DNA of 51,977 nt from an uncultured Clostridia bacterium (GTDB lineage Bacteria > Bacillota > Clostridia > Christensenellales > UBA1242): assembly GCA_947366545.1 (NCBI GenBank), contig CANBAL010000007.1:1-51977 (forward strand), given 5' to 3'. Of this stretch, positions 1 to 8,338 are shown piece by piece. The first letter of the stretch is position 1; each line of letters begins with the position of its first letter. The notes below the pieces were generated by a model. That model saw only the letters and a program-made list of their open reading frames with translations. It did not search any database and had not been told where the DNA came from. The position numbers and the translations under genes were made by a program.

Positions 1-950
1 GTGCTAGGACATGGAATAAAGCCGCCAATACCACCCTTTACGCTCACTGGCAGGAAAAGACATGGACGGATGACTACTACACATCAAGTTATGGAGGAGG
101 AGATGGAACGCAGTCAAATCCATATATCATCTCCATTGCCGCACATCTCGCCCGCCTTGCCTATGCAACAAATAATAACATTCAAACAACAAGCGGTAGA
201 TATGATAAAAATGCCTACTATAAACAAACAGCAGATATAGATATTTCTGCACACCTATGGCAACCTATAGGAACTACAAGTAATTATTTTCAAGGTGGAT
301 ATGATGGCGGGTTATATAAAATTAAACAGATAAGAGTTTCATGTGATATGTATGCAGGACTTTTTGGTTCTGCTTATGGAACGATTGAAAATATTTATTT
401 ATATATGGGTACAATTCATGCAGACGAATTATATGCAGGAGGAATTTCCGCATCGTTTTCAGGAAGAAGTATAAAAAATTGTATAGTAGAATCTGTAGAC
501 ATAGTGGCATCAAGTTCTGCTGGTGGAATAGTCGGAATAATATCTGGCTTAATGACGACTCCTATAGTAGAAAATTGCGAAGTAAACAACTGTCGAATTA
601 CAGCAAATAGTACTTCAGGAGGCATAGTAGGACATAATAGTGGACAAATAAACAATTGTTTTGCCAAGAGTTTAGTTATGAATGTTAATACAAGTAATAC
701 TGATAACACGGGTATAATAATAGGAAAAAATTCAAGAGTAGTTACAGCCTGCTACGGCAACGGTACAATCAATGGCACCGAAACTAAAGTTATGTACGGT
801 GACGCTTCTGCATGGACAAACTGGTCGCTTGTGCCAAATATAAATGGCGGACTGCCAGTACAAAAGGGACTTTATCATATCGGCGGCTTTACAGATTCGC
901 AAGAGGTTTACAATCACCTTACTGGACAAGGTTATACAGTTGTGAGTTAA
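1..950 (+). CDS. InlB-repeat/beta-helix surface protein, 5'-truncated by the window edge
   Basis: The reading frame is open from base 3 to the TAA at 948-950, so this is the C-terminal 315 codons of a larger gene. It begins inside the end of an InlB B-repeat (Listeria-Bacteroides repeat; motif NTTLYAHW). It then continues as a GLUG-like right-handed beta-helix region with recurring 'GGIVG' and 'IENC' turns. The last ~55 residues (AWTNWSL, GGLPVQKGLYHIGG, SQEVYNHL) nearly match the end of the 5940-8317 protein, so the two are paralogues. There is no C-terminal membrane anchor or LPXTG motif. The function is probably extracellular adhesion or matrix binding, inferred from the domain classes only. 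Confidence 0.85.
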   Translation, partial: ARTWNKAANTTLYAHWQEKTWTDDYYTSSYGGGDGTQSNPYIISIAAHLARLAYATNNNIQTTSGRYDKNAYYKQTADIDISAHLWQPIGTTSNYFQGGYDGGLYKIKQIRVSCDMYAGLFGSAYGTIENIYLYMGTIHADELYAGGISASFSGRSIKNCIVESVDIVASSSAGGIVGIISGLMTTPIVENCEVNNCRITANSTSGGIVGHNSGQINNCFAKSLVMNVNTSNTDNTGIIIGKNSRVVTACYGNGTINGTETKVMYGDASAWTNWSLVPNINGGLPVQKGLYHIGGFTDSQEVYNHLTGQGYTVVS

Positions 951-5905: not shown

Positions 5906-5933
5906 TTGTTTTTGTTAAAAAAATGTATATAAT
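5906..5933 (+). promoter_or_regulatory. Promoter of the phase-variable surface gene (leaderless type)
   Basis: TTGTTT (5906-5911), a 16-bp spacer and TATAAT (5928-5933) are followed by only 6 nt before ATG 5940. Transcription would start at or beside the start codon. No Shine-Dalgarno fits in the gap. Confidence 0.7.
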
Positions 5934-5939
5934 AAAAAT

Positions 5940-8317
5940 ATGAAAAATCTAGGAAAGTTAACTTTATTAGTTTTATGTTTCTGTACTATTTTTACAGGGG
6001 CTCTTCTTTTAACTTCTAATTTTGCGGGGGGGGGATTTTAGACACTGAAATTTCCCAAGATGTAGATGATAATCATGGGCATGAGCATGCTGATGCTGCC
6101 ACTTGTCCAAACTGTCGAGGCACTACCTTTGCTGGAACTAGGTGTGTGCAATGTGGATATAACACTGCATATACGGGTAGGCAATTTACAATATATTTCA
6201 ATAAGGCAGACGGAAATTCAGGAACAGATGTTACGAAAGTGACATATTGGTCGTCGTATCCAAGCATATCAATTCCATGGAAAACGGGATATACGTTTGG
6301 TGGATATTATGATGAGTCTGGCAATCGTTATTACAATTCTAGCGGTCAATCAGTAGCGGGAACATGCACCCTCAGTAGTGATATTGTCCTTTATGCACGC
6401 TGGAATGGTAATCAATATGCCGTTTATTTCAATAAAGCAGACGGCACGGGCGGTACCGATAGTACAACGGCAACTTACGGTAGTGCCATGCCAAGCATAA
6501 GTTTGCCATCAAAAAGTAACTATGTTTTTAATGGATATTATGATGATAGTGGAGTGCAATATTATACTTCCACGGGTGCTAGTGCAAGAAATTATGATAA
6601 AACAGATTATACCATCCTTTACGCACGCTGGGCAGATGTTGTTAGTCCAACAATCAGCCGTGCGACATGGGTACAAAATGGTTCCACAGGGTATTATGCC
6701 TATGCTTATGCCAGTGATAATATCGGGGTGACAAAGGTGCAGTTCCCAACATGGACAAATGCAAATGGACAGGATGATTTAATTTGGCATGATGGCAGCA
6801 GCGGTTCATGGACGGTAAATGGCTCATCGTATAATTGGAGATGTTTAATTAATCGTTCCAATCATAACAACGAATATGGTGCATATACAACGCATGTATA
6901 TGCCTATGACGCAGCAAACAACTCAGTCGCTATTGCTATGAGTACAGTGACATTTTGTTTAATTACTTTTAATGGGAATAAAGGTAGCGGATCCACAACG
7001 CCTACTGTGCCAACCACAAGCGTTGTGGCGACAAATGGCACAAGCATGCCTGCGGCCTCAAAGCCATCTCGTTCAGGATATACCTTCCAAGGCTATTATG
7101 ATACTTCTGCGACAACCGGTGGCACTCAGTATTATACTAATACGGGCGCTAGTGCAAGGGCTTGGGATAAGACGGCAAACACAACACTTTATGCCCGTTG
7201 GAGTGCAAATAAATACACGGTGACATTTAATGTGAACGCAACAAGTGGAGTTACATCGGTAGGTACAACAAGCACCACCGCCACTTTTGACGCCGCCATG
7301 CCAAGCATAACAGTGCCAAAAAGGACAGACTACTTTTTCTATGGTTACATATATCAAAGCACAGGGAATGATTACTACACCACAACAGGAACAAGCCGTC
7401 GTAAATGGGATATAGCAAGTAACGCCACTCTTTATGCTAATTGGGAAGAAAAATTATGGATAGAGGATGAAAGTTATTATTCATCATCGCTTACAGGACA
7501 AGGCACATTAAATAACCCATATCTAATTACTTCAGAAAAAGATTTTGCTTACCTTGCATATACTTCCAAAGGCGAAACTTATAGCGGAAAATATTTTAAA
7601 CAGACAGCAAATCTTAATCTTAATGCTCACCCATGGATAGGCATTGGCGTGTTAGAAACCCCATTTGCAGGAATTTATGATGGCGGCTTATATCAAATAA
7701 CTGGACTTCGTATGCGCGCTGGTTTAAGTGAAAGTAATTTTGGCTTGTTTGCCTATGCCACAGGTACAGTGCGTAATGTAGAACTGAAAGATATAAATAT
7801 TCGTACCTCAGGCAGCAACATAGGGGGACTGATAGGTAATGCAACTAATGCTACTATTGAAAATTGCGTTATGAGTTCGCTGTCAATATATGGATTTCAA
7901 AATGTAGGTACATTTGTGGGTTATATGAATGGTGGCACTATCAAAAATTGTTCCTCCAAATCTTGTAGAATTTCAGGTACCAGTTATTTAGGGGGTATTG
8001 CGGGTTGTGCGACAAGCAATGTATCCGTAAATGATGTGAGCATCATAGACTTTTATGGTGGTGATTTTAGTGATATTTTCTTTGGTAGCAAGACAAGTAC
8101 CGTTAAATTAAGTGGGTGCTATGGCAATGGAGAGGCAGATGGAAACACCCAGTACCTTATGTACGGTGGTGCAACTGCATGGACAAACTGGTCGCTTGTG
8201 TCAGATGTAAACGGTGGACTACCCGTGCAAAAAGGTCTGTATCATATTGGTGGCTTTACCGGTTCACAAGAGGTATACAATTACCTTACAACACATGGCT
8301 ATACAGTACAAAATTAA
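5940..8317 (+). CDS. InlB-repeat surface protein, frame-split at a G9 tract (phase-OFF as sequenced)
   Basis: ATG 5940 opens a signal peptide (MKNLGKLTLLVLCFC..TGALLLTSNFA) whose frame stops at TAG 6039. The mature protein lies in another frame, open from 6020 to the TAA ending at 8317. The frames overlap only at 6020-6038, and nine G (6026-6034) fill that overlap. Ten or seven G would give one 792- or 791-residue protein. The mature part opens with a CPNC..CVQC knuckle. Four InlB B-repeats follow (about 6185-6405, 6416-6630, 6960-7200, 7211-7447). A GBS Bsp-like module (about 6632-6955) sits between repeats 2 and 3. The end is a GLUG-like beta-helix and a C-terminal block shared with the 1-950 protein. 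The uninterrupted downstream frame could also start at GTG 6146 but would then lack a signal peptide. Confidence 0.85.
6026..6034 (+). promoter_or_regulatory. Poly-G (G9) slippage tract, candidate phase-variation switch
   Basis: Nine consecutive G lie directly after the signal-peptide Ala codon. Slipped-strand gain of one G, or loss of two, joins the signal peptide frame to the mature frame. It is the longest G-run noticed in this AT-rich window. A sequencing or assembly indel is the main alternative. Confidence 0.75.
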
Positions 8318-8338
8318 AAAGTGGCTAAGCCACTTTTT
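8316..8338. terminator. Bidirectional terminator
   Basis: GTGGC (8321-8325) / GCCAC (8329-8333) is extended by flanking A and T runs. It separates the surface gene from the convergent SDR gene, whose stop codon (8325-8327) lies in the loop. Confidence 0.8.

What the first reader, a model, noticed from the sequence alone, without database searches (positions are those of the whole stretch)
5940..6041. Poly-G (G9) on/off switch at the signal peptide of a large surface protein
Seen directly: a clean signal peptide in one frame (ATG 5940 to TAG 6039) and an ~760-residue InlB-repeat protein in another, open from 6020. The two can be joined only inside 6020-6038, and that 19-nt overlap holds nine consecutive G. 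One added G (or two lost) gives one continuous 792- (or 791-) residue secreted protein with the expected start. Established: slipped-strand mispairing in poly-G tracts drives phase variation of surface antigens in Campylobacter, Neisseria and others, but it is little described in Clostridia. Inference: the sequenced copy is OFF, and the population is mixed.
Basis: partly seen in the sequence, partly recalled or inferred. Interest (0 to 1): 0.9.

Follow-up and report, generated by a model that had tools for sequence, protein, structure and literature searches.

The report
Poly-G switch on surface protein gene
A run of nine Gs sits where a bacterial surface protein's export signal meets its body and puts the two out of register; it is one of 29 such runs in this tiny bacterium's genome, which look like a set of random on/off gene switches.

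Summary
G9 lies at 6026-6034, inside the only 19 nt where the signal-peptide frame (5940-6041) and a 760-codon InlB-repeat frame overlap; as assembled they are out of register. It is not chance and not alone. The 950,806-bp genome holds 29 G/C runs of 8 or more: 23 G9, five G8, one G10, but one G7; at most about 1.1 runs of 9 or more are expected. By my reading 16 lie in genes and 11 between near-consensus -35 and -10 boxes, with one probable and one tentative more. Five InlB paralogues carry the run at the same junction, one in frame; a sixth has an interrupted, in-frame run. Eight other species carry it at signal junctions; with this genome 6 of 22 callable genes are in frame. One species instead has G9 in promoter spacers. 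Orthologous promoter runs differ by a base. MutS and MutL are present. Best reading: slipped-strand phase variation, a known kind, in a clade where my searches found none described. No reads were available; a mixed population is untested.

The parts
5928..5933 (+). TATAAT -10-like box 6 nt before the ATG, no clear Shine-Dalgarno; possibly a leaderless transcript
   Evidence: Read. A -10-like box 4-10 nt before the ATG is seen upstream of the six family copies in this genome whose start is visible (by eye). The consensus scan did not report this site; its -35 is weak.
5940..6041 (+). Signal-peptide / N-terminal anchor frame, ending at TAG as assembled
6026..6034 (+). G9 tract, flanked C-G9-A, at the signal peptide/body junction: the proposed slippage site
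6020..8317 (+). Body frame of the surface protein (open 6020-8314, stop 8315-8317), out of register with the signal peptide as assembled
   Evidence: dN/dS against four paralogues 0.11-0.18
6716..6937 (+). GBS_Bsp-like repeat (PF08481)
   Evidence: residues 191-264 of the 6146-8317 ORF
6962..7195 (+). Best of three Flg_new / InlB-type Listeria-Bacteroides repeats (PF09479)
   Evidence: residues 273-350 of the 6146-8317 ORF
7811..7867 (+). GLUG motif (PF07581)
   Evidence: residues 556-574
8316..8338 (.). Stem-loop at the gene's 3' end, terminator-like
   Evidence: One search lists it on the minus strand
3..950 (+). C-terminal part of a paralogue, cut by the contig start, so its junction cannot be seen

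Best explanation
The G9 run is a translational phase-variation switch. Replication slippage adds or removes Gs; because the run lies at the end of the signal peptide, a one-base change decides whether translation that starts at 5940 continues into the InlB-repeat body (exported or membrane-anchored protein) or stops a few codons later at 6039. The copy as assembled is out of frame. It is one element of a genome-wide set: such runs sit in 16 genes (frame switches) and in 11-13 promoters between -35 and -10, where length changes the spacer and so the strength of transcription. Shown: the runs, their positions, frames, spacers, non-random number, length differences between homologues, and conservation of out-of-frame bodies. 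Inferred: slippage as the cause, reversibility within a clone, the expression change, surface display, and the benefit (varying surface proteins, perhaps against host immunity or phage).
For: (a) Excess and shape: 23 exact G9 against one exact G7 in this genome; 375 against 110 over 61 genomes of the genus (summed); expected runs of 9 or more at most about 1.1. (b) Position: five InlB paralogues in this genome have the run at the same junction, with G8, G9 or G10, one of five in frame; a sixth (contig C1) has the same junction with an interrupted run, in frame. (c) Other species: 22 callable signal-junction genes in nine genomes, 6 in frame, near the one third expected of drift (one search gives 20; L272 and L284, missed by its filter, come). 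Set aside: L248, cut by a contig end, and three G000 runs (L048, L055, L063) with a signal-like frame but no long body, which I count as promoter runs; G001, G023 and G067 gave none; 24 of the 27 G002 runs were fetched. (d) Out-of-frame bodies are open for 891-2739 nt, some cut by the fetched stretch; dN/dS is 0.11-0.38 with third-position excess in 17 of 38 paralogue pairs, the rest having under 60 alignable codons (the identity filter lowers dN and dS is often above 1). (e) Promoters: 11 of 29 runs lie between hexamers with at most one mismatch in all to TTGACA/TATAAT, against 0.08% of 4,000 random placements (it printed ten and dropped an identical eleventh). The C-strand pattern is in 25 of 61 genus genomes (62 matches), its reversed control in 0 of 61. 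In G067, 12 of 17 G9 runs sit in such spacers, seven of the 12 with a signal-like ORF within 200 nt. (f) Homologous runs differ: promoter orthologues G035 C10 / G036 C9 (flanks 90%) and G065 C9 / G061 C10 / G030 C8 (90-92%). (g) The length profile resembles Campylobacter poly-G (53% of 9, 26% of 10; PMC6321876, passages).
Against: No reads, so no length variation within one population was seen; all differences are between paralogues or species, and 30 of the 76 homologous pairs listed have equal lengths (my count). MutS and MutL are present, which should slow slippage in mononucleotide runs. Nine of the 11 tract-bearing genes that are not InlB-type are in frame, several of them ordinary enzymes, which immune evasion alone does not predict. 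13 of 61 genus genomes have no exact G9, so the system is not general in the genus. Poly-G length is hard to sequence: in B. breve the reference length was not that of the main population (PMC9187656, passages).
Confidence: 0.87

Rival explanations
1. Programmed slippage of RNA polymerase or ribosome at G9 makes a constant share of full-length protein from the out-of-frame gene; DNA length does not vary.
For: Rescue of frameshifted poly(A) genes by polymerase slippage is reported for Buchnera (PMC2831843, passages). Out-of-frame bodies are conserved.
Against: Does not explain runs in promoter spacers, which are not transcribed, nor length differences between homologues. The RNA around the tract is not unusually structured (z -1.17). 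May act in addition.
Confidence: 0.06
2. Consensus or assembly error: the true copy is in frame and invariant.
For: Poly-G is hard to sequence; the assembly has 17 contigs and its method is unknown to me.
Against: An error would not place long runs at the same functional sites in this genome and in other species' assemblies. It could still alter the count, so the OFF call for this copy is weak.
Confidence: 0.04
3. Mutational bias alone: a polymerase prone to expand G runs leaves neutral tracts.
For: A C-run-A flank is shared by coding and promoter runs whatever the strand (21 of 28), which hints at a mutational context.
Against: By my reading 27 of the 29 runs lie in a gene or a promoter spacer, and the other two (C4:45726, C11:21077) possibly in a promoter. 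Runs recur at the same junction in paralogues and species and in promoter spacers instead in G067.
Confidence: 0.03

Closest known systems
Campylobacter poly-G phasome (PhasomeIt, PMC6321876; passages)
   Same: Poly-G is the main variable repeat; lengths peak at 9; many loci per genome; frame switches.
   Different: There 77% of tracts lie in ORFs; here 16 of 29 (55%), with 11-13 in promoter spacers. The clade is Clostridia and MutS and MutL are present; that Campylobacter lacks working MutSL is recalled.
Bifidobacterium breve sortase-pilus G-tract switch (PMC9187656; passages)
   Same: Gram-positive gut commensal; an intragenic G-tract joins or splits two ORFs of a surface structure.
   Different: Another phylum (recalled); two pilus clusters studied in B. 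breve, not a genome-wide set; slippage was measured there and is only inferred here.
Neisseria fetA / porA promoter-spacer variation (PMC5320596; passages)
   Same: A poly-C (fetA) or mixed T/G (porA) run between -10 and -35 changes spacing and expression.
   Different: Three transcriptional loci in the gonococcal strain studied; here 11-13 in one genome, and 12 of 17 G9 runs in G067.
Clostridioides difficile invertible switches, cwpV, cmr and others (PMC6837544; passages)
   Same: Phase variation of surface functions in Clostridia.
   Different: DNA inversion by a recombinase; [quoted passage not shown] difficile at its date (2019).

Membership tests
SSR-mediated (slipped-strand) phase-variable loci | Repeat tract longer than chance allows | tested here: met
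SSR-mediated (slipped-strand) phase-variable loci | Tract placed so that length alters frame or promoter spacing | tested here: met
SSR-mediated (slipped-strand) phase-variable loci | Tract length differs between homologous copies | tested here: met
   Between paralogues and species only: 46 of 76 listed pairs, many not independent (my count)
SSR-mediated (slipped-strand) phase-variable loci | Length varies within a clonal population, reversibly and at high rate | not testable with these tools
   No reads and no second genome of the species were available
SSR-mediated (slipped-strand) phase-variable loci | Expression follows tract length | not testable with these tools
   Needs RNA or protein data
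Mismatch-repair-deficient hypermutable genomes | MutS/MutL missing | tested here: not met
   MutS over cut-off in 59 of 61, MutL in 60 of 61 genus genomes, both in G000
InlB-repeat / Listeria-Bacteroides repeat surface proteins | PF09479 repeats above the curated cut-off | tested here: met
   65.7 bits against 27, three stretches
InlB-repeat / Listeria-Bacteroides repeat surface proteins | Exported and displayed on the surface | tested here: inconclusive
   Signal-like N-terminus in frame with the body in one of five tract-bearing paralogues and in the fixed sixth; no anchor motif was tested

The most novel reading that the evidence does not exclude
A genus of about 1-Mb, mismatch-repair-proficient Clostridia runs a two-layer phase-variation programme in which poly-G runs of nearly uniform length (G9) and shared C-G9-A context are installed and kept by a dedicated process, and the same kind of surface gene is switched at the signal peptide in some species and at the promoter spacer in another, with ordinary enzymes and an RNA-polymerase-alpha-CTD-like protein also under switch control.
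Probability: 0.15. Interest if true: 0.88.

Novelty: new member of a known kind. Interest (0 to 1): 0.72.

Why it matters
Phase variation by slipped-strand runs is textbook for Campylobacter, Helicobacter and Neisseria; the clostridial switches I found in print are DNA inversions. A genus of uncultured, reduced-genome Clostridia with 20-30 poly-G runs of this kind in some species means that a single consensus sequence misstates what these cells can express, and that gene callers may split or discard such genes. It also gives a ready test set: orthologous promoters whose spacers differ by one base, and surface genes switched by two different routes.

Tried and rejected
Mismatch-repair loss as the cause: rejected, MutS and MutL present. 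RNA structure around the tract as a frameshift signal: nothing unusual. Internal restart of the body in the OFF state: no convincing Shine-Dalgarno before the first GTG at 6146 by eye. Single-locus chance run: rejected. A second strain of the same species: none to hand (genome search holds one genome per species). Naming the genus: GroEL hits give only uncultured MAG titles near the top (84% to CAOJXO010000005.1, an uncultured Firmicutes MAG; 70% to Candidatus Coproplasma excrementavium). Paper searches for poly-G phase variation in Clostridia or Christensenellales gave nothing on point in the listings; most subscription journals are not held. One-on-at-a-time expression: 1 of 5 InlB copies in G000 and 1 of 9 callable in G002 are in frame, but paralogues share frame register and the numbers fit drift, so it is not claimed.

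Full report
Observation. ATG 5940 opens a frame with a hydrophobic N-terminus that ends at TAG 6039-6041; the other frame is open from 6020 to 8314; G9 lies at 6026-6034. The body has three Listeria-Bacteroides (InlB-type) repeats, a GBS_Bsp-like repeat and a GLUG motif. A TATAAT box ends 6 nt before the ATG and there is no clear Shine-Dalgarno, so the transcript may be leaderless; the six copies of the family in this genome whose start is visible have a -10-like box 4-10 nt before the ATG (by eye), although the consensus scan did not report the site in the window.

Chance. G000, the window's genome, is 950,806 bp in 17 contigs, 97% complete. Eight-G matches there number 54, which resolve into 29 runs: 23 G9, one G10, five G8. 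Whole-genome counts of exact runs: G9 23, G7 1. In 240,354 bp of it (window plus stretches chosen round the runs, L049 left out as overlapping), G/C runs number 103, 4, 0 for lengths 5, 6, 7 and then 5, 22, 1 for 8, 9, 10. Order-1 to order-3 models trained without the runs predict 0.3-1.1 runs of 9 or more per genome. Over 61 genomes of the genus there are 375 exact G9 against 110 exact G7 (summed); 48 of 61 have at least one exact G9, 13 have none.

What the 29 runs are in. Sixteen lie in coding frames, G on the sense strand: five InlB paralogues at the signal junction; a lipoprotein-like protein of DUF5722 with the run just after a cysteine; and proteins matching Peptidase_M16, Ser_hydrolase, Pep_deformylase, His_Phos_1, NUDIX, adh_short, PNPOx_N, PemK_toxin (a MazF-like domain in a 501-codon frame) and Beta-lactamase (PF00144, a superfamily that also holds other serine hydrolases); the sixteenth had no Pfam hit in its upstream piece and 'isochorismatase-like' is my recall. 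Ten of 16 are in frame and six not: one of five InlB copies, nine of the other 11 (Fisher p = 0.036). Eleven runs lie between hexamers within one mismatch in all of TTGACA and TATAAT, C on the coding strand of the promoter (ten printed, an identical eleventh dropped by the script); random placement gives 0.08% in 4,000 trials. One more has two mismatches (C4:45726; its gene was not identified) and one three (C11:21077, before a 754-residue protein with a sub-threshold InlB repeat); the last is tentative. The nine proteins scanned behind these promoters are mostly small or without a clear family; one has an RNA-polymerase-alpha C-terminal domain and one a SHOCT match just under cut-off; two more, one lipoprotein-like, had no hit.

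Spacer lengths. Exact TTGACA/TATAAT pairs without a run in the held stretches have spacers of 16-18 in 12 of 14 cases (mode 17); those with a run have 14 (2), 15 (5), 16 (1) and 18 (1). L049, left out there, has 19, and C1:181491 has TATACT at 19. So in most the assembled length is off the usual optimum, as expected if length sets strength. That is inference.

Other species. The promoter pattern is in 25 of 61 genus genomes (62 matches) and its reversed control in none. Across the order it is in 9 of 297 genomes, control 0: 4 of 13 in the genus, 0 of 9 in other genera of the family, 5 of 275 elsewhere. The signal-junction run occurs in G002 (nine callable copies, one in frame; 24 of its 27 runs were fetched), G078, G061, G066, G070, G030, G035 and G036; with G000 that makes 22 callable genes, 6 in frame. 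Not counted: L248, cut by a contig end, and three G000 runs with a signal-like frame but no long body. G001, G023 and G067, as far as fetched, gave none. G035 and G036 carry homologues of one large protein (leucine-rich repeats in the G035 copy), in frame in G035 and out of frame in G036. In many other InlB-type loci of the genus no run is found at a visible start, so the junction run recurs but is not general. In G067, 12 of 17 exact-G9 runs lie between -35 and -10 with at most one mismatch and 15 of 17 with at most two; seven of the 12 read TTGACA-16-TAAAAT with G on the coding strand; seven of the 12 are followed within 200 nt by an ORF with a signal-like N-terminus, one by an ABC-ATPase-like ORF (my reading), four by none that the script found. 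Several lie near the InlB hits. So similar surface genes are switched by frame in some species and by promoter in another.

Length differences. By my count 46 of the 76 homologous pairs listed differ in length and 30 do not; most are from one G023 family and not independent. The clearest are promoter orthologues: G035 C10 against G036 C9 (811 nt aligned, 90.0%), and G065 C9, G061 C10, G030 C8 (650-741 nt, 90-92%; the G030 copy reads C8T). In genes: the Ser_hydrolase of G000 and G002 (G9/G10, 78%), the isochorismatase-like gene of G000 and G023 (G8/G9, 77%), two G000 InlB copies (G10/G8), and the G023 family (G10-G12). These are evolutionary differences, not within-population ones.

Function kept in OFF copies. 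Bodies of out-of-frame copies are open for 891 to 2739 nt, some cut by the fetched stretch. In 17 of 38 paralogue pairs of G000 and G002 with enough alignable codons dN/dS is 0.11-0.38 with third-position excess. The 60%-identity filter lowers dN and dS is often above 1, so the ratios are rough; long OFF periods would still have broken the frames.

Mechanism. The simplest single cause that fits coding runs, promoter runs, length differences and kept bodies is slipped-strand mispairing at replication. Mismatch repair is present (MutS over cut-off 59 of 61, MutL 60 of 61, G000 both), so this is not a repair-deficient hypermutator. Transcriptional slippage could add some full-length product but cannot explain promoter runs.

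Unexplained. 21 of 28 long runs in G000 are flanked C-run-A, read on the G strand, whether coding sense or promoter antisense, while G5 runs are C-A in 11 of 103. G002 (16 of 21), G035 (8 of 10) and G036 (10 of 13) agree, G001 (0 of 9) does not, and G023 (C-C, 12 of 13) is mostly one gene family. I have no tested reason.

Known kinds. The closest are the Campylobacter poly-G phasome (PMC6321876, passages), B. breve pilus G-tracts (PMC9187656, passages) and the Neisseria fetA/porA spacers (PMC5320596, passages). Clostridial phase variation that I saw in print is by inversion (PMC6837544, passages; the review PMC11868660, passages, cites C. difficile for invertible promoters). A poly-C slip in group A Streptococcus mga (PMC10330708, search listing) shows that Gram-positives are not exempt. 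Nothing on this clade appeared in the listings of nine paper searches.

Verdict. A real, functional-looking switch of a known kind, in a clade and on a scale I did not find described; within-population switching remains to be shown.

Noticed in passing
G000 (28 runs), G002, G035, G036: Long G runs are flanked C-run-A on the G strand whether coding or promoter (21 of 28 in G000); shorter runs are not, and G001 is not. Unexplained.
   Followed up: partly
G023, L254 and L256-L265: Twelve related copies with G10-G12 near a start codon (DUF6273 in the one scanned), with TTATCCACA-like words around the run; all 14 runs of G023 are on the minus strand of 10 contigs.
   Followed up: partly
L063:4379-5142 (G000 contig C14): A protein with an RNA polymerase alpha C-terminal domain lies behind a C8 promoter-spacer run; a second near-identical promoter follows it.
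   Followed up: no
L064:2925-5456 minus strand (G000 contig C1): An InlB paralogue with the same Gly-Gly-Gly junction but an interrupted run, in frame: a natural fixed version.
   Followed up: yes
L050 (G000 C2:51367-57771): Three enzyme-like genes within 6.5 kb (Ser_hydrolase, peptide deformylase, histidine phosphatase) each carry an in-frame G9.
   Followed up: no
window 1-950; G000 C5:1-944; end of C4: Contigs break inside InlB paralogues, so some junctions are missing from the assembly.
   Followed up: no
G002: Its contig C5 has the same length (91,888) as CAOJXO010000005.1, so G002 is probably the MAG SRR15604611_bin.41.
   Followed up: no
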